A stretch of DNA of 64,000 nt from Armatimonadetes bacterium 55-13 (lineage in GTDB: Bacteria; Armatimonadota; Fimbriimonadia; Fimbriimonadales; Fimbriimonadaceae). Of this stretch, positions 5,526-39,975 are shown piece by piece (position 1 is the stretch's first letter; each line of letters begins with the position of its first letter). The notes below the pieces were generated by a model that was not told the origin of the DNA, did no database searches, and was given only the letters and a program-made list of their open reading frames with translations. The stretch lies in the NCBI GenBank assembly GCA_001898035.1, contig MKRX01000026.1, forward strand, positions 41,367 to 105,366. The letters are read 5' to 3'. The translations under genes were made by a program, and so were the position numbers.

Positions 5526-7789
5526 ACTTAGGTCTAGTTGGCATCGTCGCCGGACTCCTCACTATGAACGTATTAAACGCCGATGCCGCACAGAGCATCC
5601 CTCGCCCCGAGCATCCTCGGCCCGATATGGAACGGGCGGAGTGGCTCAATCTGAATGGCTCCTGGGAGTTCGCCGAGACCGACGACTCCAAAGACACCAG
5701 CTTCCTCACCAAGTCCAATTACCCGGACAAGATCCTCGTCCCCTTTTGTCGGGAGAGCGAGCTTTCCGGGCTGAACCGAAAGGGCTTCGTCAAGAACGTT
5801 TGGTATCGGCGCAACTTTGCCCGACCGAAGAACTGGAAGACGTCTCGCACCATCCTCCACATCGGCGCGTGCGACTGGCTCACCACCGTCTGGGTTAACG
5901 GGCACCAGGTCGGCCAGCACACCGGTGGATCGGTCGCCTTCGGGTTCGAAATCACCCAGTACCTCAAGCCCGGCGACAACACCGTCATCGTTCACGCCTT
6001 CGATGACACCAAGAGCGGCCTCCAGGCCCTCGGCAAGCAGTGTACGGAAGAAAAGAGTTTCGGCTGTCTCTACACCCGAACCACCGGCATCTGGCAGACC
6101 GTTTGGCTGGAAGGCGTCGGCGCCAGTTACCTGAATGGCGTTCGAATCGAGCCGGACGTGGCCGGATCGCAGTTCCTGATCACCGCCGAAGTCGCCAACG
6201 CCCTCCCCGGACAGAAAGTTCATGCCGTCGTCAAAGCTGGCGGCAAGACCGTTGCCGAAGCCGAGACCACCGCAGACTGGCGCAACGGCAAGATGGTGGT
6301 CCCCATCTCCAAGCCCCGCCTCTGGTCCATCGAAGATCCGTTCCTTTACGACGTCGAACTCAGTGTCCGCCAGAACGGCAAGACGGTCGATACCCTCAAG
6401 ACTTATGCGGGGATGCGCTCCATCACCATTGACGGCCACGCCATCCTGATCAACGGCAAGCCCGTGTTCCAGCGACTCGTCTTGGACCAAGGCTTCTATC
6501 CGGACGGAATCTGGACCGCCCCCAGCGCCGAGGCCCTGAAGCACGATATCGAACTTTCGATGGCCGCCGGTTTCAATGGGGCGCGACTCCACCAAAAGGT
6601 GTTCGAACCCCGATTCCTGTACTTGGCCGACAAGATGGGCTACTTGGTCTGGGGCGAGTTCCCGAACTGGGGTCTGAACTACGCCGACCCGCGCATCAAC
6701 CTCCCCGTCCTCGACGAGTGGAACGAGATAGTTCGCCGAGACCGCAACCACCCCAGCGTGGTTGGCTGGTGTCCCTTCAATGAATCGGCAGACTCGGCCG
6801 GTCCTATCCAAAACGCCACCGTTGCCCTAACTCGACAGTTGGATCCGTCCCGACCGATTATCGACAGTAGCGGCTGGACGCACACCGTTGCCAATCCAGA
6901 AGTCCTGGATGCCCACGACTACGACCAGAACCCCGCCACCTTCCGAGATCGCTGGATGCGGTACTTCCAAGGCGACGGCCTGCCCCCGCAGTACGGCCAG
7001 AAGCCAAAGGTTGGCGTTCCGTTCATGGTCAGTGAATACGGCGGGATTGGCTGGGCCACCGGCGAAGGCTGGGGCTATGGCAATTCGCCCAAGACCCTGG
7101 AAGAGTTCTACACCCGGTTTGAAGGACTGGGCGACGCCCTCCTGGATAACCCGAACATGTTCGGCTTCTGCTACACCCAGCTCACCGACGTTGAGCAAGA
7201 GCGAAACGGCGTTTACACGTACGACCGCAAGCCCAAGTTCGATGTCAAAAAGCTCCACGCCGCTCTCTCCAAGAAGGCCGCGTTTGAAAAAGGCGTTTCC
7301 GCCAGCACGAACAAAGCCATGACCTGGACCACTGTCGTCGGTTCCGCTCGTGACGGCTCCCTTGCCAAAGACTGGCAGTACACCACCGAGAAGCCCGCCG
7401 AGGACTGGTTCAAGCCCGAGTTCAACTCCACCAGTTGGAAGTCCGCGCCAGGCGGATTCGGGAACAAGGACAACGCGGAAAAGACCAAGTGGACCACGTC
7501 GGACATCTGGCTCCGCCAGTCCTTCGACTACGAGCCCATCACCTTTGAGCGGGGTCTGATCGCCATTCACTACGATAACGCCGCCCAGATCTACATCAAT
7601 GGCGCGCTCGTGTGGGCGGCTGAGGAAGGGACCTGGAATGACGGCTATGACGGCATGGAAGTCACCGCCGCGCTCCGCAAGGCGCTGAAGAAAGGCAAGA
7701 ACGTCGTCGCCGTCCACTGTCACCAAAACGACGGCGGACAATTCATCGACCTCGGCATCCTCCTCGGCTCGAGTGGAAATAAGGAGTAA
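5522..7789 (+). CDS. secreted glycoside hydrolase family 2 protein
   Basis: A 755-residue exported GH2 enzyme (beta-galactosidase/beta-glucuronidase superfamily). Signal peptide about 1-23. Jelly-roll sugar-binding domain at about 35-190 (LNLNGSWEFAE; VWYRRNFARP; CDWLTTVWVNGHQVGQHTGG), immunoglobulin-like domain about 195-300, TIM barrel about 305-590. Acid/base Glu421 in CPFNES and nucleophile Glu505 in FMVSEYGG. A second galactose-binding-like beta-sandwich at about 630-755 (WLRQSF...AAQIYINGALVW) forms the C-terminus. GH2 covers several specificities, and beta-galactosidase, glucuronidase and others cannot be told apart here. Start and upstream stop overlap as ATGA, so it is translationally coupled to the arabinofuranosidase and probably acts on the same material. 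Confidence 0.88.
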   Translation: MNLGLVGIVAGLLTMNVLNADAAQSIPRPEHPRPDMERAEWLNLNGSWEFAETDDSKDTSFLTKSNYPDKILVPFCRESELSGLNRKGFVKNVWYRRNFARPKNWKTSRTILHIGACDWLTTVWVNGHQVGQHTGGSVAFGFEITQYLKPGDNTVIVHAFDDTKSGLQALGKQCTEEKSFGCLYTRTTGIWQTVWLEGVGASYLNGVRIEPDVAGSQFLITAEVANALPGQKVHAVVKAGGKTVAEAETTADWRNGKMVVPISKPRLWSIEDPFLYDVELSVRQNGKTVDTLKTYAGMRSITIDGHAILINGKPVFQRLVLDQGFYPDGIWTAPSAEALKHDIELSMAAGFNGARLHQKVFEPRFLYLADKMGYLVWGEFPNWGLNYADPRINLPVLDEWNEIVRRDRNHPSVVGWCPFNESADSAGPIQNATVALTRQLDPSRPIIDSSGWTHTVANPEVLDAHDYDQNPATFRDRWMRYFQGDGLPPQYGQKPKVGVPFMVSEYGGIGWATGEGWGYGNSPKTLEEFYTRFEGLGDALLDNPNMFGFCYTQLTDVEQERNGVYTYDRKPKFDVKKLHAALSKKAAFEKGVSASTNKAMTWTTVVGSARDGSLAKDWQYTTEKPAEDWFKPEFNSTSWKSAPGGFGNKDNAEKTKWTTSDIWLRQSFDYEPITFERGLIAIHYDNAAQIYINGALVWAAEEGTWNDGYDGMEVTAALRKALKKGKNVVAVHCHQNDGGQFIDLGILLGSSGNKE

Positions 7790-7805
7790 TAGGAACCGAC
7801 CTTCT

Positions 7806-9302
7806 ATGGCCGAACTACTTCAATTAAGAAACATCCAGAAATCCTTTCCGGGTGTCAAGGCCCTCGACGGCGTGAGCTTCACGGTTCGCGCCGGCGAGGT
7901 TCACGCGTTAATGGGAGAGAACGGCGCTGGCAAGAGCACCTTGATCAAGGTCATGACCGGCGTCCACACCCTCGATAGCGGCGAGATTCTGCTGGAAGGC
8001 AAACCCATCCAGATCAAGTCTCCACAGGACGCCGTGAGCCAAGGCATCAGCACCGTCTATCAAGAGGTCAACCTGGTGCCCAACCTGTCCTTGGCCGAGA
8101 ACATTTGTCTTGGGCGAGAGTCCGCCGGGTTCACCGGTATCAAGTGGAAAGAGGTTAAAGAGCGCGCCGAGCGAGCCATGGCCCGGCTCGGCTTGAACGT
8201 TGACGTTCGCCGACCGCTCGGGAGTTTCTCCATCGCCATCCAACAGATGGCCGCCATTGCCCGCGCTCTGGACGTCGACGCCAAGGTACTCGTGCTGGAC
8301 GAGCCCACTTCCAGCTTGGACCGAGACGAAGTCAAACAGCTTTTCGAGGCGATCACCAAACTCAAGAACGAGGGCATGGGGATCGTCTTCGTCACTCATT
8401 TCCTCGATCAGGTTTACGCCGTCTCCGACCACATTACGGTTCTACGTAACGGCAACAACGTGGGAGACGCGCCCATCGACCAACTTCCCCGCCTCGAACT
8501 TGTCTCAATGATGATCGGTCGCGATGCGTCGGCCCTCGAATCGGAGCGAGTCGCCAAAGACCCCATCCAATCCACCTCCTTCATCGAAACCCAAGACATG
8601 GGTCATAGCGGTAGCGTGGAGGGCGTCAATTTCACCATCGGTAGCGGCGAGGTCCTCGGCTTGGCCGGATTGCTCGGCTCGGGCAGAACGGAAACGGTGC
8701 GGCTTCTTTACGGGATCGATAGCGCCAATCACGGAGAACTGAAAATCGACGGTCGCTCCGCATCCGGTCACAAGACTTCCAAGGCCATCGCCTCCGGCTT
8801 TGGGCTCTGCCCCGAGGACCGTAAGCTGGAAGGAATTCTGCCCGATCTTAGCGTCCGCGAGAACCTCACCATCGTGCTTCAAGCCCGTCAAGGTTGGTTC
8901 CGCAAACTCAGCCGGTCCAAGCAGGACGAGATTGTTCAAGTCTTCATCGACAGCCTGCGCATCAAGACCGCCAGCCCGGAGACGCCGATTAAGAACCTTA
9001 GCGGCGGGAACCAGCAGAAGGTTATCCTCGCCCGATGGCTCGCCGCGAACCCCCGTCTACTCCTCCTCGACGAGCCGACTCGCGGAATCGACGTTGGCGC
9101 CAAGTTTGAGATTTCTGCCCTCATCGAGAAGCTTCGAAAAGAGGGAATGGCGTTCGTATTCGTCTCTTCCGAATTGGAAGAAGTCGTTCGAAGCTGCACC
9201 AAGATCGCCGTCATGCGGGATAGAAAGATGGTCGGCATGTTGACCGGAGAAGAAGCCAGTGAAGAGAAAGTCATGTCCATGATCGCCGGAGGCGAAGCTT
9301 GA
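7806..9302 (+). CDS. sugar ABC transporter ATP-binding protein (RbsA/MglA/YtfR type)
   Basis: A 498-residue protein with two fused ABC ATPase domains, the CUT2 layout that powers import of monosaccharides. Domain 1: Walker A GENGAGKST (about residues 35-43), Walker B VLVLDEPTS, degenerate signature FSIAIQQMA. Domain 2: degenerate Walker A LLGSGRTET, intact signature LSGGNQQK, Walker B LLLLDEPTRGID. The asymmetry of one good and one poor P-loop is normal for CUT2 ATPases. The ATG at 7806 fits the family start (AELLQLRNIQKSFPGVKALDG) with AGGA at 7791-7794; a GTG at 7773 inside the previous gene would add 11 atypical residues. Follows the GH2 gene by 16 bases and is followed by two permeases. 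Confidence 0.92.
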   Translation: MAELLQLRNIQKSFPGVKALDGVSFTVRAGEVHALMGENGAGKSTLIKVMTGVHTLDSGEILLEGKPIQIKSPQDAVSQGISTVYQEVNLVPNLSLAENICLGRESAGFTGIKWKEVKERAERAMARLGLNVDVRRPLGSFSIAIQQMAAIARALDVDAKVLVLDEPTSSLDRDEVKQLFEAITKLKNEGMGIVFVTHFLDQVYAVSDHITVLRNGNNVGDAPIDQLPRLELVSMMIGRDASALESERVAKDPIQSTSFIETQDMGHSGSVEGVNFTIGSGEVLGLAGLLGSGRTETVRLLYGIDSANHGELKIDGRSASGHKTSKAIASGFGLCPEDRKLEGILPDLSVRENLTIVLQARQGWFRKLSRSKQDEIVQVFIDSLRIKTASPETPIKNLSGGNQQKVILARWLAANPRLLLLDEPTRGIDVGAKFEISALIEKLRKEGMAFVFVSSELEEVVRSCTKIAVMRDRKMVGMLTGEEASEEKVMSMIAGGEA

Positions 9303-10309
9303 AGTTTCGTCAATCCAATTTGTTTTGGCCGCTCATGGCCCTGCTGGGAATTCTCCTATTCAATTTGATCCTCACCCCCGGCTTCTTTCACGTGGAGATG
9401 CGCGATGGGCGTCTCTTCGGAAGCCTGATTGACATCGTGAATCGCGCCGCCCCCGTCATGATCCTTTCCCTCGGCATGACCCTGGTGATTGCCACCGGAG
9501 GCGTTGATCTCTCGGTGGGCGCAGTCATGGCGATCGCGGGCGCTGTCGCAGGTTGTTTGATCGCGAGGCCCGAGGGCTGCATCCTGAACGCACTGAACGT
9601 TCACGGCTCCATCCCCGCCATCATCGCCGTCGCCCTCTTCGTCGCCCTCATCTGCGGCATCTTCAACGGGTTTCTCGTCAGCTTCCTGGAGATTCAGCCC
9701 ATCGTCGCGACCCTGCTCTTAATGGTAGCGGGACGTGGTGTCGCCCAGTTGCTGACCGATGGCCAGATCGTCACTTTCAACGATCCCAAGTTCGCCGCTC
9801 TAGGCAGTGGTTCCACGTTCGCGATCCCGAATCCCATTTGGCTCTTCGTTATTGCCGCTATCCTGATCGGCTTGCTCGCTCGAAAGTCCGCCTACGGCCT
9901 GTTCGTCGAAGCAGTTGGAAACAATCCCGTTGCCAGCCGCTACTCGGGCATTAACGCCAAGAACGTCAAACTGACCGTATACGTCATCTGCGCCGTTCTC
10001 GCCGGATTAGCCGGACTCATCCCCACCGCCGACATCAAAGGCGCAGACGCGAACAACGTCGGGCTCTACCTCGAACTGGACGCCATTCTCGCCGTCGCCA
10101 TCGGAGGGACTTCGCTTGCCGGTGGACGATTCTCCATCGCGGGCTCCATTCTCGGCGCGATCTTGATGCAGTCGCTCACCACCACGATTCTCACCCGCGG
10201 CGTTTCCGCCGAGATCACGTTGATCCTTAAGGCCGCCGTCGTGGTCATCGTCGCCCTCTTCCAGGCCCCAGAATTCCGGGCACGATTTGCCCGAAGGAGG
10301 GCGGCATGA
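9299..10309 (+). CDS. sugar ABC transporter permease (YtfT-like)
   Basis: A 336-residue inner-membrane permease of the BPD_transp_2 (RbsC) family with about 9-10 hydrophobic helices. INRAAPVMILSLGMTLVIATGG-DLSVGAVMAI, allowing small changes, closely follows E. coli YtfT, the galactofuranose-importer permease, more than RbsC. The start is TTG at 9299, forming a TTGA overlap with the stop of the ATPase gene; GGAGG at 9288-9292 is a good ribosome site. Together with the following YjfF-like permease it makes a heterodimeric channel, the arrangement found in YtfQRT-YjfF. The neighbouring arabinofuranosidase suggests a pentose or hexose in furanose form as substrate. Confidence 0.88.
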   Translation: MKFRQSNLFWPLMALLGILLFNLILTPGFFHVEMRDGRLFGSLIDIVNRAAPVMILSLGMTLVIATGGVDLSVGAVMAIAGAVAGCLIARPEGCILNALNVHGSIPAIIAVALFVALICGIFNGFLVSFLEIQPIVATLLLMVAGRGVAQLLTDGQIVTFNDPKFAALGSGSTFAIPNPIWLFVIAAILIGLLARKSAYGLFVEAVGNNPVASRYSGINAKNVKLTVYVICAVLAGLAGLIPTADIKGADANNVGLYLELDAILAVAIGGTSLAGGRFSIAGSILGAILMQSLTTTILTRGVSAEITLILKAAVVVIVALFQAPEFRARFARRRAA

Positions 10310-11292
10310 AGGCCATCTTCACCAAAGAGCGATTGCCCATCATCGCCACCTCGCTGGTTTGTATCGCCATCTACGTGGCGGCAGGGTTGAAGTTCGAAGG
10401 CTTCTTTAGCCTTCGCGTCTTCTTGAACTTTCTGACCGACAACGCGTTCCTCGGCATCACCGCCGTTGGGGTCACCTTCGTCATCCTCAGCGGCGGCATC
10501 GATCTCTCGGTCGGCTCCATGGTGGGCTGCACGGGCATCATGACGGCGGTGCTGATTCAAAACAAGCACCTTCACCCTGCCCTCGCCATAGCCACCGTGC
10601 TGCTATTCGGACTGCTCTTGGGTTGCGGTCACGGGCTCTTGATCCAAAAGTTTAATCTGCCGCCATTTTTGGTGACGCTGGCAGGGTTGTTCTTGGCGCG
10701 TGGGCTCGGCTTGTGGATCAGCAAAGAATCGGTTCAGATCGATCATCCATTCTTCTCGGCCCTGGCCGGAATCAAGATTAGCCTGCCCAACGGCGCTTCT
10801 CTTCCCATCTCCGCCATCCTCTTCCTCGTTGTCCTGGTCGCAGGCATCGTCCTGGCAAAACAAACCCGTTTTGGTCGTACCGTCTACGCCATTGGCGGCA
10901 ACGAGAGTTCGGCGATGTTAATGGGATTATCGGTAGGAAAAACCAAGATTTGGATTTACGCCCTGAGCGGATTCTGTTCTGCATTAGCAGGTGTGGTGTA
11001 CACCATCTACACCTCTTCTGGAAACGCTCTATCTGGCACGGGGCTTGAGCTAGATGCCATCGCCGCCGTTGTGATTGGGGGGACGCTCCTCAGTGGTGGA
11101 TACGGCTCGGTCTTCGGCTCTTTCCTCGGCGTACTCATCCTCGCCATGATTCAAACTGCGATCAACTTCGATGGAAGTCTCAGTTCCTGGTGGACTCGTA
11201 TCGCGATTGGAACACTCTTACTTATCTTTATGTTGCTGCAAAAAGGAATCGAAGTAAGCGCCAGAAGAACTTCTAAGAAAGCGGGGCACTAA
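10306..11292 (+). CDS. sugar ABC transporter permease (YjfF-like)
   Basis: A 328-residue integral membrane protein, second permease of the CUT2 importer. NAFLGITAVGVTFVILSGG and IDLSVGSMVG carry the family core, and LKFEGFFSLRVFLNFLTDN resembles the E. coli YjfF N-terminus. About nine hydrophobic segments are visible. ATGA overlap with the YtfT-like gene ensures coupled translation. It is the last gene of the operon that starts at 3141. No periplasmic binding protein gene precedes or follows it, which is unusual because the cognate binding protein is normally first in such operons. A weak hairpin lies 50 bp downstream. Confidence 0.88.
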   Translation: MKAIFTKERLPIIATSLVCIAIYVAAGLKFEGFFSLRVFLNFLTDNAFLGITAVGVTFVILSGGIDLSVGSMVGCTGIMTAVLIQNKHLHPALAIATVLLFGLLLGCGHGLLIQKFNLPPFLVTLAGLFLARGLGLWISKESVQIDHPFFSALAGIKISLPNGASLPISAILFLVVLVAGIVLAKQTRFGRTVYAIGGNESSAMLMGLSVGKTKIWIYALSGFCSALAGVVYTIYTSSGNALSGTGLELDAIAAVVIGGTLLSGGYGSVFGSFLGVLILAMIQTAINFDGSLSSWWTRIAIGTLLLIFMLLQKGIEVSARRTSKKAGH

Positions 11293-19835: not shown

Positions 19836-19899
19836 TGGGTCCTCCCTCACTTTTCGTTGCCCTCGCGAAGATGGCTTGATATACTCGCCTCATCTTCCT

Positions 19900-22800
19900 A
19901 TGAGAGCAACTTTCTCGATTTACACCATCCTGGTCGTAGCGGGGACCGCCCTCGCCAACGATCCGTCCAAACCCCTCCTGGCGAGAAACCCCACCCTAAG
20001 TGAGACCTCCATCGTTTTCGAGTACGGTACCGATCTCTGGTCCGTACCCCGAGCGGGCGGGCAGGCGAGGCGACTGACGATCGGCGCCGGATTAGAGGTA
20101 GAGCCCCACTTCTCGCCTGACGGCAAATGGGTGGCCTTCACGGGAGACTACGATGGCAACCAAGACGTTTACGTCGTCCCCGCCACCGGTGGCACCCCCA
20201 GACGACTTACTTTTCATCCCGTCAGCGATGAAGTGCAGGGATGGACGCCTGATGGAAAGTCGATTCTGTTCTCGTCCTCATTCGAGCAAAGCCTTGGGCA
20301 AAACCGGCTCTACACCGTGCCCCTTCAGGGAGGATGGCCCAAAGCTCTTCCGCTCCCCCGAGGCATGACCGGCTCACTGTCTCCAGACAGCAGCAAAATT
20401 GCCTATATCCCGCACGATCTGTGGCAGCCAGAATGGAAGCGGTACCAGGGCGGACAGACTACGCCGATCTGGATAGCACGACTCTCCGATTCCAAAATCG
20501 AAAAGGTCCCCCGCCAAAATTCCAACGACCGATTCCCCATGTGGATTGGCGATAAGGTCTATTTCGTGTCCGACCGCAGCGGACGAAGCACCCTGTTCGC
20601 CTATGACACCGGTTCGAAAAAGGTGAGCCAGCTCCTCTCGCCGGCCGACTTTGAAATCAAATCCGCCTCCGCTGGTGAAGACGCCATCGTCTTCGAACGG
20701 ATCGGGTCGATCTACCTCTACGATCTCAAGGCGAAGTCCGAGAAGAAGGTCCCCATTGAGATCGATGACGACCTCCTAGAAGTCCGTCCCGGATACCGCG
20801 CCGTCGGCGACCAGATTCAAGCCGCCGACGTCTCTCCGAATGGCATCCGCGCAGTGGTTGAAGCCCGCGGAGATATCTTCACCCTCCCGGTAGACAACGG
20901 CGACCCTCGAAATATCACCCAAACGCCCGGGGTAGCCGAACGCACCCCGCTCTGGTCCCCCGACGGTAAGAAGATCGCCTATCTTACCGACGCCAGTGGA
21001 AACTACGAGCTCAATGTCGTGGATCAGATGGACGGGACCAAACCGGAAGTCTACAAGCTCTCGGACACGCCCAGTTGGTATCACTCGCTCGCTTGGTCGC
21101 CAGACTCCAAGAAAATTGTCTACGTGGATCAGTCTTTGCGGATGTACATCCTGGATCTGGAAACCAAGAAGTACATTCAAATTGATCGGGAGCCCTACTA
21201 TTTCTTCGGCGACTCACTCAATCCCAATTGGTCGCCCGACAGCAAGTGGATCACTTACACCAAGCGCCTAAAAAATAAGCTTCAGGCCGTATTTCTTTAC
21301 AGCCTAGAGACCGGAAAGTCGACCCAAGTCACCGACGGTCTCAGTCAGGCGGATAACGCGGTCTTCGATCGCGGCGGAAGATTGCTCTATTTCATGGCCA
21401 GCACCGACGTCGCCCAAACGCTCTCCGTCGGCGGCATGAGTTCCATGGATCACCAGGTGACTCGAAGCATCTATGTGACGGTTCTGCGCAACAGCGACCC
21501 TTCCCCCCTCGCGCCAGAAAGCGACGAGGAAGAGGGCGATACCCAGCGATCTCCTGGCAAGCCAGATCCCGCCGTCAAGATTGACTTGGACGGCATTTCC
21601 CAGCGCATCCTCTCGGTGCCGCTTCCACCCGCTCCCTACGATTCTTTGGTAGCCCTCACTCCCAAGAGCTTCGTCGTCCTCCGAGGCGGGTCGGCGATCA
21701 AGTACTCCTTCGTCTCGCGTCGGCCCATGCCGTTTGGCAACGGCATCCAGTTCATCATCCCGACCCCGCACGGCGATAAAGCCCTCATTCAAATGGGCGG
21801 CAGCGTGGCCATCGTGTCTACCATGACTCCTCCTCAACCCGGTCAAGGCGTGGTCGGTACGGACGGGATGCAGGCCATGATCGACCCGAAGGCGGAATGG
21901 CGGCAGATGTTCTTCGAGGTCTGGCGCAACATGCGAGACTTCCTCTACGATCCGAACACCCACGGCTTGGACATTCAAAAAGTCATCGCCCGGTACCAGC
22001 CCTACCTTGAGAACCTCAGCAGTCGCGCGGACTACAACTATCTCATGCAGGATATGTTGAACGAGGTCACCATCGGCCACACGTTCTCCGGCGGCGGAGA
22101 CGTGCCCTCTTCGACCCGCGTTCCGGGCGGCCTCCTCGGCGCGGACTACTCTATCGAGGGTGGTCGTTACTGTTTCGCTCGTATCTACAACGGCGAAAAC
22201 TGGAACCCCGGACTCCGCGCTCCGCTCACCCAACCGGGCGCTACAGTAAAAGAGGGCGAATACCTGCTCGCCGTCAATGGAAAGGAACTCACCGCCAAAG
22301 ACAACGTCTTTGAGGCGTTCGAGAACACCGCCGGAAAACAGGTCCGAATCAAAGTTGGGGCCTCGCCCAGCCTCGCCACCGCGCGGGAGATCGTCGTTGT
22401 TCCCGTCGGCTCCGAGTACTCACTGCGCTACAAAGCCTGGGTTGAGGATAACCGCCGAAAGGTCGATTCCCTGTCGGGTGGCAAGATTTCGTACATCCAC
22501 ATGCCCGACACGGGTGGAAGCGGCTACACCAGCTTTAACCGCTACTTCATGTCCCAACTGGACAAGGACGCCGTTCTCGTCGATGACCGGTTCAACCAGG
22601 GCGGTGCGCTCTCCGATTACGTCGTTCAAATCCTGACGCGGCAAGTACTCGGCAACGGCGCTCAACGCGATAGCGAGGATTTCCCTATCCCCATCTTCTC
22701 GAACGAGGGGCCCAAGGCGATGCTGATCAATGAGATGGCGGGGTCAGGAGGAGACGCTCTCCCCTGGTTCTTCCGCACTGGCAAGGTCGGTCCACTTATC

Positions 22801-23109
22801 GGCAAGCGGACCTGGGGCGGACTTGTCGCCGCTGGTCAGGGAGTACCCCTTATGGGTGGCGGATTCGCTACCGCTCCGCAAGTGGCGATCTATGGACTCA
22901 ACGGTGAATGGGAGGTCGAAAATCACGGCGTCGCACCGGACATCGAGGTCGACGAAGATCCTTACCTGTGGCGACAGGGGCAAGATCCTCAATTGGAAAC
23001 GGCGGTCAAGGTCCTTCTCGAAGCGCTTAAGAAGAACCCACCCAAGAAGTACAGGCGCCCCGCCTATCCCAACTATCACAAAAACGACGGACTGGGCAAA
23101 GGCAACTAA
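19900..23109 (+). CDS. tricorn-like S41 peptidase with PD40 beta-propellers
   Basis: A 1069-residue exported protease. Signal peptide MRATFSIYTILVVAGTALA. Residues about 35-520 contain repeated PD40/WD40-like propeller blades (FSPDGKWVAFTGDYDGNQDVYVV; WSPDGKKIAYLTDASGNYEL; WSPDSKKIVYVD). A PDZ-like segment lies near 770-850 (VKEGEYLLAVNGKEL), then the S41/tail-specific protease core with catalytic Ser949 in NEMAGSGGD. This architecture is that of the Thermoplasma tricorn protease and its bacterial homologues, which trim peptides. Here a signal peptide points to an envelope location. The ATG at 19900 is preferred to a TTG at 19876, because it begins directly at the signal peptide. Stands alone, with a terminator directly after it. 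Confidence 0.9.
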   Translation: MRATFSIYTILVVAGTALANDPSKPLLARNPTLSETSIVFEYGTDLWSVPRAGGQARRLTIGAGLEVEPHFSPDGKWVAFTGDYDGNQDVYVVPATGGTPRRLTFHPVSDEVQGWTPDGKSILFSSSFEQSLGQNRLYTVPLQGGWPKALPLPRGMTGSLSPDSSKIAYIPHDLWQPEWKRYQGGQTTPIWIARLSDSKIEKVPRQNSNDRFPMWIGDKVYFVSDRSGRSTLFAYDTGSKKVSQLLSPADFEIKSASAGEDAIVFERIGSIYLYDLKAKSEKKVPIEIDDDLLEVRPGYRAVGDQIQAADVSPNGIRAVVEARGDIFTLPVDNGDPRNITQTPGVAERTPLWSPDGKKIAYLTDASGNYELNVVDQMDGTKPEVYKLSDTPSWYHSLAWSPDSKKIVYVDQSLRMYILDLETKKYIQIDREPYYFFGDSLNPNWSPDSKWITYTKRLKNKLQAVFLYSLETGKSTQVTDGLSQADNAVFDRGGRLLYFMASTDVAQTLSVGGMSSMDHQVTRSIYVTVLRNSDPSPLAPESDEEEGDTQRSPGKPDPAVKIDLDGISQRILSVPLPPAPYDSLVALTPKSFVVLRGGSAIKYSFVSRRPMPFGNGIQFIIPTPHGDKALIQMGGSVAIVSTMTPPQPGQGVVGTDGMQAMIDPKAEWRQMFFEVWRNMRDFLYDPNTHGLDIQKVIARYQPYLENLSSRADYNYLMQDMLNEVTIGHTFSGGGDVPSSTRVPGGLLGADYSIEGGRYCFARIYNGENWNPGLRAPLTQPGATVKEGEYLLAVNGKELTAKDNVFEAFENTAGKQVRIKVGASPSLATAREIVVVPVGSEYSLRYKAWVEDNRRKVDSLSGGKISYIHMPDTGGSGYTSFNRYFMSQLDKDAVLVDDRFNQGGALSDYVVQILTRQVLGNGAQRDSEDFPIPIFSNEGPKAMLINEMAGSGGDALPWFFRTGKVGPLIGKRTWGGLVAAGQGVPLMGGGFATAPQVAIYGLNGEWEVENHGVAPDIEVDEDPYLWRQGQDPQLETAVKVLLEALKKNPPKKYRRPAYPNYHKNDGLGKGN

Positions 23110-24567: not shown

Positions 24568-24651
24568 ACTCCATTGTGAGGAGACGACTCACCCAAGTCA
24601 AGCTGGCCGAACGGCCCATCTCCCCGTCATACGAGATCCGCCCGGGCTGAA

Positions 24652-25308: not shown

Positions 25309-25377
25309 GTCGTAGTCACTCGGGAAACAGATTAACCGGTTATACGACACTTCTTGCCGGTGGTGTTGCGTTGACTC

Positions 25378-26379: not shown

Positions 26380-26541
26380 TTTGGCACATAGCAGTTTGGT
26401 CGTTTCGACGGCGTGTCTAGCTAAGCAAGTTCGTAACGAATTTCAGAAGACCCTTTTGAAATGCTCGCCATGTTAGAGAGATCGAACACAGGTATATGTC
26501 CACATAGCGCTACCTTAACTTAAAGCCACGAGGTTTATTGA
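26380..26541. promoter_or_regulatory. divergent intergenic region, sialidase-fold / fucosidase
   Basis: 162 bases between divergent starts, A/T-richer than the genes. GAGG at 26529-26532 is a plausible ribosome site for the fucosidase ATG at 26542. No clear operator palindrome was found. Confidence 0.35.
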
Positions 26542-28104: not shown

Positions 28105-28105
28105 G

Positions 28106-29272: not shown

Positions 29273-30682
29273 ATGCGAAATGCTCTTCACTTGATCGCCG
29301 GTTCTCTCGTTGAAGGAGGATCGGGCGGCTTCGATTCTTTGAATCCCTCGGAGCCGACACAAATCGTGGCGAAGGCGCCGCTTGGAACGGACGCGGAAGT
29401 TGCCCTGGCGGTCAATGCCGCATCAGAAGCCTTCGAGAGTTGGCGAAAGACGCCGGGACCGGGGAAGGCGGAGCGGTTGTACGCTTGGGCAGAAGCGATT
29501 CAGGCTCGCGCAGCTGAACTGGCAGAGGCGATTGCGACGGAAGTCGGCAAGCCGATTGGCGAAGCCAAGGGCGAGGTCGGGCGCTGCGTCGCTATCCTTC
29601 GCTATTACGCGGGCGAACCGGTTCGACCGAGCGGGGATGTGATTCCTGGATTGGCGAACGGCATTCTCCAGTATTCCTTGCGCGAGCCTTTGGGAGTGGT
29701 GGGATTGATTACGCCCTGGAACTTCCCGATGGCGATTCCGCTTTGGAAGGCGGCCCCGGCACTGGCGATGGGCAACACGATTGTTTTGAAGCCTTCCGAA
29801 CACTCCGCCCTCTGCGCGCACCTTCTGGCCGAAACGGCAGTAGCCGCCGGATTGAAGGGTGAATTCAATGTGGTCCAGGGCGCGGGCCCGGCGGGCTCGG
29901 CGCTGGTTCAGCATCCGGACGTAAAGGCGATCAGCTTTACCGGTTCGGACGCAACTGGGGCGAAGATTTCGGTGGCCTGTGCGCAACTCAATAAGAAGTT
30001 CCAGACCGAGATGGGCGGCAAGAACGTGGCGATCGTTTTGGCCGACGCGGACCTCGCCCAAGCGGCGAACTTGGTGGCGGCAGGCGCCATGCGCTTTGCG
30101 GGCCAGAAGTGCACGGCCACGAGTCGGGTCGTGGTGGAATCTTCGGTCTCCGGAAAGTTCATCGAGGAGTTGAAGAAGGCGATCGACGGGCTTCCCGTTG
30201 GGAATCCTCTTGAGATGGCCACGGCGGTTGGTCCGGTGATCAACCAGGCATCCTACGACAAGCTCAATGCAGCCGTGAAACAGGGCGAGACGATTCACCA
30301 GGTTGCCGCGCCAAACACCGGCTACTTCGTGAGCCCTACCGTTTTGGGAGGCGTAGGGCCGGAGCATGACTTGGCGCAGAATGAATTGTTCGGTCCGGTT
30401 CTCACCTACCTGGAAGCGGGTTCGCTGGACGAGGCGCTGACGATTGCTAACCAGACTCGGTTTGGGCTCTCGGCTTCGCTTTGTACCCGAGACATTCGGG
30501 CGGCGCTGACCTACATCGATCGGATTCAGGCGGGCATGGTTCGAGTGAACGCGGATACGACGGGCGTCGATCCTCACGCGCCGTTCGGGGGCATGAAGGG
30601 CTCCAGCTCTGGCACTCGCGAGCAGGGCGCGGTGGCGAAGGACTTCTACACGCAGTACAAGACCGTCCAGATCAACCCCTAG
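29273..30682 (+). CDS. NAD(P)-dependent aldehyde dehydrogenase, candidate 2-oxoglutarate semialdehyde dehydrogenase
   Basis: A 469-residue ALDH-superfamily enzyme. GLITPWNFPMAIPLWKAAPA, FTGSDATG, catalytic Glu in TEMGGKNVA and Cys280 in FAGQKCTATSR are intact. The layout with ASEAFESWRKTPGPGKAERLY resembles 2-oxoglutarate semialdehyde dehydrogenases (KGSADH, YcbD-like) and succinate semialdehyde dehydrogenases. In hydroxyproline or L-arabinose oxidative catabolism this enzyme makes 2-oxoglutarate; the three other hydroxyproline enzymes are encoded at 34.9-38.0 kb. The specificity is inferred from that context rather than read from residues. Monocistronic, with a strong terminator directly downstream. 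Confidence 0.85.
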   Translation: MRNALHLIAGSLVEGGSGGFDSLNPSEPTQIVAKAPLGTDAEVALAVNAASEAFESWRKTPGPGKAERLYAWAEAIQARAAELAEAIATEVGKPIGEAKGEVGRCVAILRYYAGEPVRPSGDVIPGLANGILQYSLREPLGVVGLITPWNFPMAIPLWKAAPALAMGNTIVLKPSEHSALCAHLLAETAVAAGLKGEFNVVQGAGPAGSALVQHPDVKAISFTGSDATGAKISVACAQLNKKFQTEMGGKNVAIVLADADLAQAANLVAAGAMRFAGQKCTATSRVVVESSVSGKFIEELKKAIDGLPVGNPLEMATAVGPVINQASYDKLNAAVKQGETIHQVAAPNTGYFVSPTVLGGVGPEHDLAQNELFGPVLTYLEAGSLDEALTIANQTRFGLSASLCTRDIRAALTYIDRIQAGMVRVNADTTGVDPHAPFGGMKGSSSGTREQGAVAKDFYTQYKTVQINP

Positions 30683-34802: not shown

Positions 34803-34812
34803 GCCACCTCGC

Positions 34813-34857
34813 CCTTGCGGAGTGTGGCTTGGGCGGCTCGCCCAAGACTCCGCAAGG
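34813..34857. terminator. nested hairpin between convergent genes
   Basis: An outer 11-bp stem (ccttgcggagt/actccgcaagg) encloses an inner 8-bp stem (cttgggcg/cgcccaag) with a 3-base loop. It lies between the secreted-protein gene and the end of the hydroxyproline operon. Symmetrical, without a strong T-run, so probably a two-way transcript end. Confidence 0.55.
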
Positions 34858-34880
34858 ATTACCCCTCTCTGCTAGCCGAA

Positions 34881-35789
34881 CTAACCGATCTTGACGGGTC
34901 GATTAGCGAGGGCTTCTCGAATCAGCGTTTGGATCTCAGCCAACCGCGCGCCTTCCAGTTCCAGACGCGGCGGGCGGACGGTGGCGGTACCCATGCCGAC
35001 TTCTACTTGGATGAGCTTGATGAGCTGAACGAAGTCGAAGGTGGTGTCCAGGCGGAGGAGCGGGAGCATCCACTCGTACAGCTTGCGGGCGTCCTCGTAC
35101 TTGCCAGCGAGAGCCATATTGAAGAGGTCGATGGACTCTCGGGGAAGGGCGTTGACGACGCCGGCGATCCAGCCCGTTGCGCCAGCGGCGATGCCTTCCA
35201 CGATGACGTCGTCCACGCCGACGAAGAGGGCGAGGCGATCATCGATGAGGGCTCGGATGGCGGTGACGCGTCGAACGTCGGCGCTGGACTCCTTCACGGC
35301 GTGGAGGTTGGCGTGAGAGTTGGCTAATTCTTGCACCTGCTCAGGAAGGAAGTCGGTGCCGTAAGCGATGGGGTTGTTGTAGAGCATGCAGCTCAGCCCG
35401 GTCGCTTCGATGACGGCGGAGACGTGGTACTTCATCTCGGCCCAGGTGCCCTTGTAAACGTAGGGAGGCAGAACCATGAGGCCCTTGCAGCCGACCTTTT
35501 CCGCTTCCTTGGCCAAGGCGACGGCCTCGGCGGTGCTGAGCGCGGCGATACCAGCGACGATGGGCACTCGGTCCCCGACCGCTTCTACGCAAGAGCGGAG
35601 GATGGCGACTTTCTCGTCGAACATCAGGGTGGCGCCCTCGCCGAGCGAACCGAGTGCGACAATGCCAGTGGAGCCCTGCTCGACCAGCCAATTCACGTGC
35701 TTCTTGAGGAACTCGTGGTCGACAGAAAGGTCCGCGTTGAACGGGGTGGTAATTGCGGGAATGACGCCGCGCCAAGTCATGGTGCTCAC
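34881..35789 (-). CDS. DHDPS-family lyase, candidate 1-pyrroline-4-hydroxy-2-carboxylate deaminase
   Basis: A 302-residue class I aldolase of the dihydrodipicolinate synthase/N-acetylneuraminate lyase family. Schiff-base Lys166 (HAVKESSAD), Tyr137 (MLYNNP) and the GSLGEG motif at about 47-52 are present. Dihydrodipicolinate synthase itself is a poor guess here: the gene follows an epimerase and an FAD oxidoreductase of the hydroxyproline pathway in one operon, where family members (LhpC/HypD type) deaminate and dehydrate pyrroline-4-hydroxy-2-carboxylate to 2-oxoglutarate semialdehyde. Starts 20 bases after the oxidoreductase stop. Last gene of the operon. Confidence 0.85.
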   Translation of the reverse strand: MSTMTWRGVIPAITTPFNADLSVDHEFLKKHVNWLVEQGSTGIVALGSLGEGATLMFDEKVAILRSCVEAVGDRVPIVAGIAALSTAEAVALAKEAEKVGCKGLMVLPPYVYKGTWAEMKYHVSAVIEATGLSCMLYNNPIAYGTDFLPEQVQELANSHANLHAVKESSADVRRVTAIRALIDDRLALFVGVDDVIVEGIAAGATGWIAGVVNALPRESIDLFNMALAGKYEDARKLYEWMLPLLRLDTTFDFVQLIKLIQVEVGMGTATVRPPRLELEGARLAEIQTLIREALANRPVKIG

Positions 35790-35809
35790 GCTTTGTATGT
35801 TACTATCAA

Positions 35810-37072
35810 TTAATCGTTCAAGTCAAAACGATTTGGATTGAAAGCATCTAGGTTTAGCGTCGTTTCTTGGTCAAGTAGAAGCTGAGATACCAGCTTTCCG
35901 GTGGCAGGGGCGAGGCTGACTCCCATCATGGAGTGACCGGTGGCGACGACCAAGTTTTGGACTCGAGCGGAACGGCCGAGGTATGGCAGACCGTCCGGCG
36001 AACAAGGGCGGAGTCCGCTCCAAACTTCCTGTCCCTCAAAATCCGACGTCTTGAATTCGGGGAAGTATTGGGGCACGGATTTGAAGATTCCTCCGAGGCG
36101 CTTACGATTGATGGAAAGGTCGTTTCCGGTCAGCTCCATGGTCCCGCCGATGCGAAGGCTGGAGCCCATCGGAGTGATGGCGACACGGGCTTCGGTAAGG
36201 ATGGAGCAGATGCCAGGGAGTTGGGGCGGGTTGTTGAGGGTGACGGAATAGCCCTTTCCGGCCTGCATGGGAATCTTTAACCGGAGCCGCTCTGCCAGTT
36301 CTCCGGACCATGCTCCGGTGGCGAGGACGAACTGATCGGCGCGAGTCTTTTCGGTCCGGGTTTCGACGGAGCGAATCCACGGGCCGTCCATGGCGAAGTC
36401 TACGATTTCTGTTTCGTCTCGAAAGACCACGCCTTCCGCTTCCAAACTGTGGCGGAGCCAATCGAGGAGACTGCCGGGAGTAAGATGGCAGTCGTCTTCG
36501 AAGTGAATCGCCCCCGCGACGTCCATGGTGATGGTGGGATCGAGTTCGGCGAGGGCTTTGGCATCAACGACCTTGGCATGAAGCCCTAAATCGTTGGCTT
36601 GCCCGGCAACGTGCGCTTCCTCGTTGAGCGTTTTCTGGCTCTTGCAGAGCATGAGGAGTCCTCGCTGATGGAGGCCAAAAGCATCGCCGGACTCGTCGGC
36701 GAGTTCTTCGTAGAGACGACGGGAGAGAAGGTGCAGGTCGCGCAGGGGGATCCCGGACGCTTTGACGTGCGCCTCATTGGCGGCGCGCATGAAGAGCCAA
36801 CCCCAGCGTAAGAGGCGCTTGTTTAAAGAGGGCTTAATGGCGAAAGGGCCCTCCGGGTTGAAGAGCATCTTGATGCCCATTCCGACCATGCCGGGGGCGG
36901 CGAGGGGGATGAAATGGCTAGGGACGACCATGCCCGCGTTGCCAAAAGAACATCCGTGATGGCCCTTCGGCTCCCGATCTACCACGGTCACTTCCATGCC
37001 ATTGCGTCGGGCATAGAGCGCGGAGCAGAGTCCGATGATGCCGCCGCCAATGATGACGACCGACTTGCTCAA
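35810..37072 (-). CDS. FAD-dependent D-amino-acid dehydrogenase, candidate D-hydroxyproline dehydrogenase
   Basis: A 420-residue flavoprotein of the DadA/DAO family. The N-terminal dinucleotide-binding motif IIGGGIIGLCSALYA is followed by an acidic ribose-binding end (VTVVDRE). The C-terminal RPCSPDGLPYLG and VVATGHSMMGVSLAPATGKL motifs are typical of DadA-like enzymes. In this operon it should oxidise cis-4-hydroxy-D-proline to the pyrroline. A TTG at 37072 gives a TTGA overlap with the epimerase stop and has GAGG 8 bases upstream; a second TTG at 37090 would add six residues. It is a single-chain enzyme, unlike the three-subunit LhpBEF complex of pseudomonads. Confidence 0.87.
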   Translation of the reverse strand: MSKSVVIIGGGIIGLCSALYARRNGMEVTVVDREPKGHHGCSFGNAGMVVPSHFIPLAAPGMVGMGIKMLFNPEGPFAIKPSLNKRLLRWGWLFMRAANEAHVKASGIPLRDLHLLSRRLYEELADESGDAFGLHQRGLLMLCKSQKTLNEEAHVAGQANDLGLHAKVVDAKALAELDPTITMDVAGAIHFEDDCHLTPGSLLDWLRHSLEAEGVVFRDETEIVDFAMDGPWIRSVETRTEKTRADQFVLATGAWSGELAERLRLKIPMQAGKGYSVTLNNPPQLPGICSILTEARVAITPMGSSLRIGGTMELTGNDLSINRKRLGGIFKSVPQYFPEFKTSDFEGQEVWSGLRPCSPDGLPYLGRSARVQNLVVATGHSMMGVSLAPATGKLVSQLLLDQETTLNLDAFNPNRFDLND

Positions 37073-37995
37073 AGTTGAATACCTCGGCAAAGGGAGTCGG
37101 CGGGATCGAAGATCAGTTCTGAAATGCCGGTGACGTAAGCCTGGCCTTGAATGGTAGGCCGAACTTTGCCATCGCCCAGGTCAACCACAGAGCCGGTGAA
37201 GCTGGTGCCGATGACGCTCTCCTGCACATAGTCTTGACCCGCCGCGAGCTTGCCTCGCGAGAAAAGGCTGGCGAGCTTGGCGCTGGTGCCGGTGCCGCAG
37301 GGAGAGCGGTCGTATTCGCCGCTGGGGCAGAGAACGAAGTTCTTGGACTGGGCGTTTGGCAGAGTCGGCGCGCCGAAAAGCTCTACGTGATCGATCTCGG
37401 GGTAGCCGTTCTGATTGAGTGCGCGGCGGATGGCCCAGCTGTACCGCGTCATCTCCTCAAGCGTCGCTTCGCCGGGAATGACGTGAGGGTCGTAGGCCAG
37501 ATAGAACCAGTTTCCGCCATAGGCAATATCGCCCACGACCGGACCGTAGTTCGGCACGTCCACGGCGACATCTTGGGCCTTGAGGTAGCTGGGGACATTT
37601 TGGATGCGGACCGTGTTGACATCCAGCAACTCGGCAGACACTACACCCACCGGAGTGTTGATCTTGTATTGCCCCGGTTCGATTTCGCCCAAAAACGCCA
37701 GCGACGCGACGAGACCGATCGTGCCGTGACCGCACATGCCGAGAGGTCCGGCAGGATTGAAGAAGATGACGTCTTTGATGGCGCCGGGAGCGGTGGGTTC
37801 GCCAACCCAAGCGCCGACCATGGCTTCATAGGCTCTCGGCTCGCGGAGGAGGGGGGCAAACCAGTCTTCGAAGTTCTCGCGAAACTTTTGGACGCGGGAG
37901 GCAATGGGGCCATCGCCGAGACTAGGAACGCCATCAAGGACGAGCCGAGTGGGCTCGCCCTCGGTATGCGAATCGATCACCTTAATGCGGGACAC
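37069..37995 (-). CDS. proline-racemase-family 4-hydroxyproline 2-epimerase
   Basis: A 308-residue cofactor-free epimerase. Both catalytic cysteines are present: Cys88 in GPLGMCGHGTIG and Cys233 in SPCGTGTSAK. The pair Cys/Cys separates epimerases/racemases from the trans-3-hydroxy-L-proline dehydratases, which have a Thr in place of the second Cys. HTEGEPTRLV at residues 10-19 and the overall length match hydroxyproline 2-epimerase, the enzyme that turns trans-4-hydroxy-L-proline into the cis-D isomer. GTG start at 37995, only 9 bases after the GH35 stop codon, so translated from the same mRNA. The next gene overlaps its stop. Confidence 0.9.
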   Translation of the reverse strand: MSRIKVIDSHTEGEPTRLVLDGVPSLGDGPIASRVQKFRENFEDWFAPLLREPRAYEAMVGAWVGEPTAPGAIKDVIFFNPAGPLGMCGHGTIGLVASLAFLGEIEPGQYKINTPVGVVSAELLDVNTVRIQNVPSYLKAQDVAVDVPNYGPVVGDIAYGGNWFYLAYDPHVIPGEATLEEMTRYSWAIRRALNQNGYPEIDHVELFGAPTLPNAQSKNFVLCPSGEYDRSPCGTGTSAKLASLFSRGKLAAGQDYVQESVIGTSFTGSVVDLGDGKVRPTIQGQAYVTGISELIFDPADSLCRGIQL

Positions 37996-38004
37996 GAGAC
38001 TATT

Positions 38005-39780
38005 TTATCCCGCGTTGAAGATTGGATCTTTCAAACTTGAAAGAGTTCTTTTCTTTCCTGATTCAAGGTCGAGGACGATGACCTCGTTCTTGCCCTTCTT
38101 CAGGAACGGGGCCGGGCAATAGAGGGTCTGCTGAGGACCAATATTCCAATAGCGACCGAGGTTGTAGCCATTGATCCAAACGTTGCCCTTGCCCCAGCCG
38201 CGCATATCGAAATAGGTGTCGCCAACATCTTTGACATCGAACTTAGTGCGGTAAAGCGCAGGCTCGGATGGGACGAGACCCTTCTCAAATCGGTACTCGC
38301 CAAAGCTGTCAAGTTCTATGGTCGAGCTGAACGGAACTTCCAGGGGTTTGCCATTGAGCTTAATGGAAGTCAGCCCCTTCCTCTCACCGAGCAATTCCTT
38401 CGAGAAATTGATGCGCCCCATGTTCTCGACGAGGACCATCACGACGCTTTCGGCGGGGATATCGACGTCCAGAGACGTTTCCTTGAGTCGTCGATCCAGC
38501 ACGCCGATTCGCTTCCCTTTAACGGAGACGATGGCACGATCTTGGAGACCTTCGAGTTCGAGTTTGCCCTTGGTTGCATTCTCGACCCAGCCTTGGTAGC
38601 GGACGAATCCAAAAGGATGATTGAGTTCTTCGAACGTCTGCCACCCGGATTGGAGGGAAATGGGACCGTCGTCCAAAAGCGTGGCTTCCTCGAAGTTGAA
38701 TTCGGGAATCTCGATGCGTTTGACGTCGCTCGGAGGTTCTGGCAGTTTCTCCGTCGTGCCCAAACGTCTCTTGATGGCGTCGCGGAAGGCGTACCACTTC
38801 GGCGTAAGCCGACCGTCTTCGGCGATGGCGGCATCGTAGTCGTAACTGGTGGTGTCCGGCTCGTAACCCTTCCCTGTCCAGTTTGCACCGTTCATGAACG
38901 CCCAGTTGGTGCCGCCGTGGACCATATAGATGTTGAACGAGACGTTATTGGCCATGAACCAATCCATGTCCTTCACTTGAGCATCCAGATTGGTCTTAGC
39001 GTGGGGAGAGCCCCAGTGATCGAACCAACCGGCCCAGAATTCGCCGCACATGCGGGGGACGTTTTGTCGGAACTTGGCAAATTCCTTGAAGGCGTTTTCC
39101 GCGCCGCCGCCGAAGTTGACCACCGAGAGAACGTCGGGAAGGGTTCCGCCCTCCAGCATCTTTTGGCCAGGACCGTCAGAAGTGTAAAGCTCACAATCAA
39201 ACCCCGCGTCCTGCACTTGGCGCTTGATCCTTTCCATATACTCGTGGTCCGCGCCAAAGGAGCCGTATTCATTCTCCACTTGGCACATGATGATGTGGCC
39301 ACCGCGTTTGATGGTGAGGGGGGCGAGGCGTTTACCGACTTCTTGGAGGTAGCGATCCGTAAGGTTAAGGAATTTCGGATCGTTCTGACGAATCTTGAGG
39401 TCCTTGATATTGGCTAGCCAGTAGGGGTAGCCACCCCATTCCCACTCGGAACACACATAAGGGCCGGGGCGAACAATGACCCAGAGTCCTTGCTTTTGAG
39501 CCTCCTTTACGAATGCCGCTACGTCGTTATTGTCTTTAAAATCCCATTTGTCCTGCTCGGGTTCATGCTCGTTCCAAAACACATAAGTGCAAATGGTGTT
39601 TAAGCCCATGGCTTTAGCCTTGAGCAGGCGATCCTTCCAATAAGCGCGGGGAATGCGATTGTAATGCATCTCCCCACTTCTGATTTGGAACGGCTGCCCA
39701 TCAAGCAAGAAATCCGTGCCTTTCCACGTAAACGTGTGGGCGGGCGCACTCACGACGAGGAGGGCGAGGGGCAGGATCAT
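38005..39780 (-). CDS. secreted GH35 beta-galactosidase
   Basis: A 591-residue exported enzyme that should cleave terminal beta-galactose. Signal peptide MILPLALLVVSAPAHT. Barrel motifs: GEMHYNRIPRAYW, FWNEHEP, RPGPYVCSEWEWGGYPYWL. Acid/base Glu in QVENEYG (residues 167-173), nucleophile Glu247 in CGEFWAGW. C-terminal beta-sandwich domains contain DMRGWGKGNVWINGYNLGRYW (conserved in GH35). The ATG at 39780 is chosen because it starts at the signal peptide; the open frame extends 38 codons upstream with non-signal sequence. Strikingly, it heads the hydroxyproline-catabolic operon, with a 9-bp gap to the epimerase gene. See findings. Confidence 0.92.
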   Translation of the reverse strand: MILPLALLVVSAPAHTFTWKGTDFLLDGQPFQIRSGEMHYNRIPRAYWKDRLLKAKAMGLNTICTYVFWNEHEPEQDKWDFKDNNDVAAFVKEAQKQGLWVIVRPGPYVCSEWEWGGYPYWLANIKDLKIRQNDPKFLNLTDRYLQEVGKRLAPLTIKRGGHIIMCQVENEYGSFGADHEYMERIKRQVQDAGFDCELYTSDGPGQKMLEGGTLPDVLSVVNFGGGAENAFKEFAKFRQNVPRMCGEFWAGWFDHWGSPHAKTNLDAQVKDMDWFMANNVSFNIYMVHGGTNWAFMNGANWTGKGYEPDTTSYDYDAAIAEDGRLTPKWYAFRDAIKRRLGTTEKLPEPPSDVKRIEIPEFNFEEATLLDDGPISLQSGWQTFEELNHPFGFVRYQGWVENATKGKLELEGLQDRAIVSVKGKRIGVLDRRLKETSLDVDIPAESVVMVLVENMGRINFSKELLGERKGLTSIKLNGKPLEVPFSSTIELDSFGEYRFEKGLVPSEPALYRTKFDVKDVGDTYFDMRGWGKGNVWINGYNLGRYWNIGPQQTLYCPAPFLKKGKNEVIVLDLESGKKRTLSSLKDPIFNAG

Positions 39781-39853
39781 GAACGCAGTTTGGCCGAATC
39801 TTGCGGTCCTTCGCGCGAATTCCCCGAATGGTCCCTGAATTCGCGAATAATTT

Positions 39854-39904
39854 CCCCAATTGACTCTAATATAGGGATCGCTTGGACGAGTCAAAAATTT
39901 GGGG
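39854..39904. promoter_or_regulatory. inverted repeat in the GH35 / VOC divergent region
   Basis: CCCCAATTGACTC (39854-39866) faces GAGTCAAAAATTTGGGG (39888-39904), the second arm carrying four extra bases. It lies about 75-125 bases upstream of the GH35 start at 39780 and about 70-120 upstream of the VOC start, where an operator for the hydroxyproline operon could sit. No regulator gene of a hydroxyproline type is adjacent. Confidence 0.4.
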
Positions 39905-39975
39905 GACTCGTGGCAAGTGACATACCGCTTATCCTGGCTCGCGGCAATAATATTGTATTAAGGATTAGTAACGTT

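What the first reader, a model, noticed from the sequence alone, without database searches (positions are those of the whole stretch)
34881..39780. GH35 beta-galactosidase heads a hydroxyproline-catabolic operon
Seen: the exported GH35 gene, the Cys88/Cys233 proline-racemase-family epimerase, an FAD D-amino-acid dehydrogenase and a DHDPS-family lyase follow each other on one strand with gaps of 9, overlap and 20 bases. Known: the last three enzyme types degrade trans-4-hydroxy-L-proline to 2-oxoglutarate semialdehyde, and hydroxyproline in arabinogalactan proteins carries O-linked galactose. Inferred: the operon couples removal of galactose from Hyp-rich glycoprotein to burning of the freed hydroxyproline. 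I know of no described operon that joins a GH35 to this pathway.
Basis: partly seen in the sequence, partly recalled or inferred. Interest (0 to 1): 0.75.

Follow-up and report, generated by a model that had tools for sequence, protein, structure and literature searches.

The report
Hydroxyproline-burning genes beside a galactosidase
A bacterium of the Fimbriimonadaceae carries a complete set of genes for burning the unusual amino acid hydroxyproline with a sugar-cutting enzyme directly in front of it; relatives put other enzymes or transporters for plant-glycoprotein-type sugars in the same place, which hints that these bacteria strip and eat hydroxyproline-rich glycoproteins, although the four genes are probably not one simple operon and the enzyme's target is unproven.

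Summary
The gene order is real: GH35 (38005-39780), 4-hydroxyproline epimerase, FAD D-amino-acid dehydrogenase and DHDPS-family deaminase lie on the minus strand with gaps of 9 nt, a 4-nt overlap and 20 nt. The epimerase has the residues that mark hydroxyproline epimerases. "GH35 heads the operon" is only partly supported. The cassette is family-wide (66 of 113 genomes), but a GH35 abuts it only here and in one congener; the third congener has a peptidase there. In all three, the epimerase has a conserved -10-like box 6-7 nt before its start; here it overlaps the GH35 stop codon. Such leaderless-type boxes are enriched genome-wide, also before tightly spaced genes, so spacing does not show co-transcription. 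The congener's GH35 lacks a signal peptide. The broader idea gains support: in relatives a GH127 beta-L-arabinofuranosidase-family gene (HypBA1's family) directly precedes the cassette (3 genomes, 2 lineages), and in three others a furanose-type ABC transporter does, 58-66% identical to one in this window. Best reading: a hydroxyproline cassette whose neighbouring slot is filled by glycoprotein-foraging genes; GH35 activity on Hyp-linked galactose is untested.

The parts
38005..39780 (-). GH35 beta-galactosidase, short signal-like N-terminus
   Evidence: PF01301 E 2.9e-115 plus BetaGal_gal-bd and ABD_1; ENEYG and GEFWAGW motifs; nearest solved relatives are beta-galactosidases 8fa5, 3d3a, 6eon
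37069..37995 (-). trans-4-hydroxy-L-proline 2-epimerase (4HypE)
   Evidence: PF05544 E 6.8e-81; best NCBIfam 4-hydroxyproline epimerase, 354 bits (below its strict 450 cut-off); Cys88/Cys233, Val60, His203, Cys223 match HypE rather than ProR sites in PMC4364671
35810..37072 (-). FAD-dependent D-hydroxyproline dehydrogenase (DadA/DAO family)
   Evidence: PF01266 E 3.4e-69; NF001933 D-amino acid dehydrogenase 264 bits (below cut-off); next to the epimerase in most relatives
34881..35789 (-). [quoted passage not shown]
   Evidence: PF00701 E 2.7e-63; YNNP Tyr and HAVKESS Lys present; below the dapA cut-off; linked to the epimerase across the family
29273..30682 (+). alpha-ketoglutarate semialdehyde dehydrogenase, fourth pathway enzyme (convergent with the cassette)
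   Evidence: PF00171 E 5.5e-144; best NCBIfam alpha-KGSA dehydrogenase, 483 bits (below cut-off 770); orthologue directly convergent with DHDPS in both congeners
37996..38009 (-). putative leaderless-type promoter of the epimerase: TAAAAT, 6 nt, GTG; overlaps the GH35 TAA stop codon
   Evidence: conserved as GATAAA(A/C)T in G000, G009, G010; TA...T at spacer 6 enriched genome-wide
35790..35826 (-). putative promoter of the DHDPS-family gene: TTGACT, 18 nt, TAACAT, 7 nt, GTG
   Evidence: the only promoter-like site found in 34700-40100, although 1.8 are expected by chance; TA(A/T)CAT at the same spacing in both congeners
39868..39894 (-). putative GH35 promoter: TTGACT, 15 nt, TATATT
   Evidence: read directly from the sequence; spacing shorter than the scan's 16-18 nt, so not reported
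19876..23109 (+). exported tricorn-type S41 protease; its orthologue directly precedes GH35 in congener G010
   Evidence: 71% identity to L129 368-3613, which carries Tricorn_C1, PDZ_Tricorn and Peptidase_S41
3141..11292 (+). alpha-L-arabinofuranosidase, GH2 enzyme and furanose-type CUT2 ABC transporter genes; the transporter's homologue heads the Hyp operon in three relatives
   Evidence: YtfR-like 668 bits, below cut-off 850; YtfT-like 375 bits; 58-66% identity to L037, L053, L055

Best explanation
The core is a standard trans-4-hydroxy-L-proline catabolic cassette: epimerase, FAD dehydrogenase, DHDPS-family deaminase and the alpha-KGSA dehydrogenase at 29273-30682. It turns trans-4-hydroxyproline into 2-oxoglutarate. 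It most likely has its own leaderless-type promoters, so it does not depend strictly on the GH35 promoter. The GH35 gene is an accessory placed in front of the cassette in this genus. It most likely trims beta-galactosyl residues from hydroxyproline-rich (arabinogalactan-type) glycoproteins or glycopeptides, while peptidases release the hydroxyproline-containing peptides. In relatives the same slot is taken by GH127 beta-L-arabinofuranosidase-family genes or a furanose-type importer. Shown: gene identities, gene order, promoter-like motifs and their conservation, the neighbourhood pattern. Inferred: substrates, regulation, GH35 activity, and that GH35 and the cassette serve one food source.
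For: Families and residues. Cassette conserved in the family. GH35 next to the epimerase in G010 at 54-56% protein identity, with a tricorn protease upstream of its GH35 on what is probably the adjoining contig. Own promoters. GH127 directly upstream in G029, G051 and G052, with about 4 nt between the GH127 stop and the DHDPS ATG in G052; GH127 on both sides in G029. About 0.03 such placements expected by chance, 3 seen. CUT2 transporter heading the operon in G079, G017, G027. Peptidases near cassettes (S9/DPPIV, S41, M24, S8, tricorn, penicillin amidase). The window is rich in genes for Ara, Gal, Fuc and Rha. HypBA1 (GH127) belongs to a bifidobacterial system for arabinosides on Hyp-rich glycoproteins: PMC7263609.
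Against: GH35 is next to the cassette in only one lineage and missing in the third congener. The G010 GH35 has no signal peptide. GH127 and other GH genes are abundant in these genomes, and the looser proximity excess is modest (7 seen versus 1.9 expected within 10 kb, P 0.0035, family chosen after looking). No activity or expression data exist. Other epimerase loci show only peptidases or nothing related to glycans.
Confidence: 0.5

Rival explanations
1. One reading: one transcript headed by an exported GH35 that removes galactose directly from Hyp-O-Gal, followed by catabolism of the freed Hyp.
For: Tight gene spacing; GH35-epimerase order kept in G010 across about 55% identity; a sigma70-like promoter upstream of GH35.
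Against: Conserved -10-like boxes before the epimerase and DHDPS genes; GH35 missing from the G009 locus; GH35 without a signal peptide in G010; no Hyp-Gal activity of a GH35 was found described.
Confidence: 0.15
2. Chance or hitch-hiking neighbour: the GH35 serves general beta-galactoside degradation in a glycan-rich island and merely lies in front of the cassette in one lineage.
For: Only one lineage; GH35 copies elsewhere in the order and beyond are not beside Hyp genes; the island is rich in other glycan genes.
Against: Chance of GH35 being the directly upstream gene in any lineage is about 0.005; GH127 and a furanose-type transporter fill the same slot in other lineages.
Confidence: 0.25
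3. Collagen-type food source: peptidases supply Hyp from collagen or gelatin, and GH35 removes beta-galactose from galactosyl-hydroxylysine.
For: Peptidases next to many cassettes and a tricorn protease next to GH35 in G010; a Colwellia cluster joins a collagenase to Hyp catabolism (PMC7883544).
Against: No collagenase was recognised among the window and neighbour genes that were annotated; GH127 and the furanose-type transporter fit plant or algal Hyp-arabinosides, which collagen lacks.
Confidence: 0.1

Closest known systems
trans-4-hydroxy-L-proline catabolic gene clusters (4HypE, DAAO, DHDPS, ALDH; Zhao et al. 2014, PMC4113996)
   Same: Same four enzyme types, genes clustered, transporters also seen as neighbours
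   Different: A glycosidase beside the epimerase; 'glycos' and 'galactosidase' do not occur in that paper's main text
Bifidobacterium longum HypAA-HypBA2-HypBA1 system with ABC importer (PMC7263609)
   Same: GH127 glycosidase and a sugar importer for Hyp-linked arabinosides, as seen beside the cassette in relatives
   Different: The described cluster has three glycosidases and a sugar importer, no hydroxyproline catabolism; here the amino-acid pathway is attached
Colwellia collagenase plus Hyp/Pro catabolism cluster (PMC7883544)
   Same: Polymer-degrading exoenzyme joined to hydroxyproline catabolism
   Different: Protease rather than glycosidase; collagen rather than glycoprotein glycans
Latescibacteria genomic prediction of extensin/AGP use (PMC4454575)
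   Same: GH127 and galactosidases proposed to attack Hyp-rich glycoproteins
   Different: Genome-wide inventory; the passages read describe no gene cluster joining it to Hyp catabolism

Membership tests
4-hydroxyproline 2-epimerase (HypE) | Cys-Cys catalytic pair | tested here: met
   Cys88 and Cys233 invariant in 10 relatives
4-hydroxyproline 2-epimerase (HypE) | HypE-type pocket (Ser/Val at site 1, His at site 4, Cys/Tyr at site 5; PMC4364671) | tested here: met
   Val60, His203, Cys223 in the alignment against the sites described (mapped by numbering and motif distance, not by structure)
4-hydroxyproline 2-epimerase (HypE) | NCBIfam equivalog cut-off (an annotation threshold, not a biochemical criterion) | tested here: not met
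   354 of 450 bits for NF052296, yet it is the best-scoring family
4-hydroxyproline 2-epimerase (HypE) | catalytic activity on trans-4-hydroxyproline | not testable with these tools
   needs an enzyme assay
trans-4-hydroxyproline catabolic cluster | all four pathway enzymes in one neighbourhood | tested here: met
   ALDH convergent, 4 kb away in the window
Glycoside hydrolase family 35 | GH35 domain with catalytic acid/base and nucleophile motifs | tested here: met
   PF01301 386 bits; ENEYG and GEFWAGW
single operon headed by GH35 | one promoter and one transcript over all four genes | tested here: inconclusive
   tight spacing but conserved internal -10-like boxes; RNA data needed
Hyp-rich glycoprotein utilisation locus | glycosidase acting on Hyp-linked sugars | not testable with these tools
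   GH127 with ETCAS and CACCPPN motifs in relatives; GH35 substrate unknown

The most novel reading that the evidence does not exclude
Fimbriimonadaceae carry a new kind of utilisation locus that joins deglycosylation of Hyp-linked glycans (GH127 for Hyp-arabinosides, GH35 for Hyp-galactosides, furanose import) to complete oxidation of the hydroxyproline core, with the glycosidase module exchanged between lineages.
Probability: 0.3. Interest if true: 0.75.

Novelty: new variant of a known kind. Interest (0 to 1): 0.5.

Why it matters
Hydroxyproline-rich glycoproteins are abundant in plant and algal cell walls, but how bacteria use both the sugar and the unusual amino acid is poorly described. 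A cassette with an exchangeable glycosidase slot would name concrete enzyme sets to test, and would suggest an ecological role for the Fimbriimonadaceae.

Tried and rejected
G020 was considered a third GH35-epimerase case and rejected: GH35 lies 3.5 kb away with an opposite-strand gene between. GH35 relatives in other phyla (L122-L124, L126-L128) have no Hyp genes in the flanks held. GH127 proximity in other families of the phylum is suggestive only (G133 5.5 kb, G135 9 kb, G113 13 kb, G171 15 kb). A link of the solved relative 6eon to arabinogalactan degradation was suspected from memory but not confirmed in the paper library and is not used. A search centred outside the Armatimonadota was not possible.

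Full report
Check. Gaps are 9 nt, a TTGA overlap and 20 nt. Pfam places each firmly. The racemase-family protein has Cys88 and Cys233 invariant, and Val60, His203 and Cys223 at the positions that PMC4364671 describes as hydroxyproline-epimerase type rather than proline-racemase type (mapped by numbering). NCBIfam's best family is 4-hydroxyproline epimerase, below its strict cut-off.

Where it occurs. The genome is a member of the Fimbriimonadaceae (Armatimonadota): congener G010 is the MAG Fimbriimonadaceae bacterium SJ693. Sixty-six of 113 genomes of the order have the epimerase, and in most loci it sits with the dehydrogenase, the DHDPS-type gene or an aldehyde dehydrogenase. The GH35 abuts it only in this genome and in G010, where the proteins are 49-72% identical. 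In the third congener G009 the gene upstream of the epimerase is an S41 peptidase, and no GH35 of this subfamily was found in that 75%-complete genome. In G020 a GH35 lies 3.5 kb away beyond an opposite-strand gene. No further case appears among 291 genomes of the phylum by coordinates.

Operon or not. In this genome a TA...T hexamer lies exactly 6 nt before the start codon far more often than elsewhere: 19 of 266 against about 3 per position. In the larger set it is 41 of 579 lead genes against 7.5, and 14 of 299 tightly spaced genes against 1.9. This is the signature of leaderless promoters, and it shows that tight spacing does not prove co-transcription here. The epimerase has TAAAAT-6 nt-GTG, overlapping the GH35 stop. 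G009 has TAAACT-6 nt-ATG behind a terminator-like hairpin, and G010 has TAAACT-7 nt-ATG (the hairpin count is not above chance in that scan). The DHDPS gene has TA(A/T)CAT-7 nt-GTG in all three, and in the window the scan's only promoter-like site, TTGACT-18-TAACAT, although 1.8 are expected by chance. So the cassette probably has its own promoters, and GH35 has another (TTGACT-15-TATATT). Read-through from GH35 is not excluded.

Location of the GH35. In the window its N-terminus is short and signal-like. In G010 the orthologue starts MSRFIIQDDQFLLDG, without a signal peptide. Export is therefore not conserved. In G010 the gene is split over two contigs (identities 54% and 65% to the window copy against 46% and 59% to the paralogue on contig C9), and the gene upstream is a tricorn protease whose orthologue is at 19876-23109 in the window.

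The wider pattern. Annotating the neighbours of the cassette in relatives gave an unexpected parallel. GH127 beta-L-arabinofuranosidase-family genes directly precede DHDPS-epimerase-dehydrogenase-aldehyde dehydrogenase in G029, G051 and G052, with about 4 nt between the GH127 stop and the DHDPS ATG in G052 and a second GH127 at the other end in G029. HypBA1, a GH127 enzyme, belongs to a bifidobacterial system for Hyp-linked arabinosides (PMC7263609). GH127 genes are common here (208 copies in the epimerase-bearing genomes of the order), yet only about 0.03 would be expected directly upstream, against 3 seen in two lineages. Looser proximity is a modest excess: 7 against 1.9 within 10 kb, P 0.0035, family chosen after looking. 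In G079, G017 and G027 a CUT2 furanose-type ABC transporter heads the operon, 58-66% identical to the transporter at 7773-11292 of this window, which here follows an alpha-L-arabinofuranosidase and a GH2 gene. Peptidases adjoin or lie near many other cassettes.

Literature. The genome-neighbourhood study of the proline racemase superfamily lists transporters and, for one cluster, peptidases, but its main text has no glycosidase (PMC4113996). A Colwellia cluster joins a collagenase to Hyp catabolism (PMC7883544). Latescibacteria were predicted to use Hyp-rich glycoproteins from a genome inventory (PMC4454575). No paper joining GH35 or GH127 to Hyp catabolism was found in the held library, which does not cover most subscription journals.

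Verdict. The pathway is ordinary and well supported (about 0.9 for the assignment of the four catabolic enzymes, by inference from family and context). A functional link between GH35 and the cassette is more likely than not at some level, but a single GH35-headed operon and Hyp-O-Gal specificity are not supported beyond adjacency. The more interesting and testable claim is that the cassette's neighbouring slot is filled by different glycoprotein-foraging modules in different lineages.

Noticed in passing
L045 11028-13394 and 2686-5025 (G029); L072 10860-13571 (G051); L079 10848-13187 (G052): GH127 beta-L-arabinofuranosidase-family genes directly upstream of (and in G029 on both sides of) the hydroxyproline cassette.
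   Followed up: partly
L037 3653-8212, L053 3606-8141, L055 4290-7911: A CUT2 furanose-type ABC transporter heads the hydroxyproline operon in three relatives; its homologue in the window is 7773-11292.
   Followed up: partly
own genome, 878 genes scanned: TA...T hexamers at exactly 6 nt before start codons are enriched about 5- to 7-fold, also inside tightly spaced gene runs: widespread leaderless-type promoters in this lineage.
   Followed up: partly
L040 7505-9019, L060 9964-11502, L064 10032-11579, L051 9950-11671: An ArnT-like membrane glycosyltransferase (PMT_2 hit in L060) lies immediately upstream of the epimerase in four genomes, for example a gap of about 8 nt in L040; no explanation.
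   Followed up: no
L043 9861-12628, L082 9938-12570, L084 9983 onward: Some relatives replace the single FAD dehydrogenase with a different, apparently multi-subunit FAD oxidoreductase pair beside the epimerase.
   Followed up: no
window 1629-7789, 23128-29068, 44185-47054, 51771-53493: The window is a glycan island: fucose-isomerase-like, arabinofuranosidase, GH2, sulfatase, sialidase-like (BNR), GH29 fucosidase, acetyl xylan esterase, rhamnulose-1-phosphate aldolase/dehydrogenase, lyxose-isomerase-like.
   Followed up: partly
window 13168-16617: A 1149-aa protein joining GH18-like, polysaccharide deacetylase and GT2 domains.
   Followed up: no
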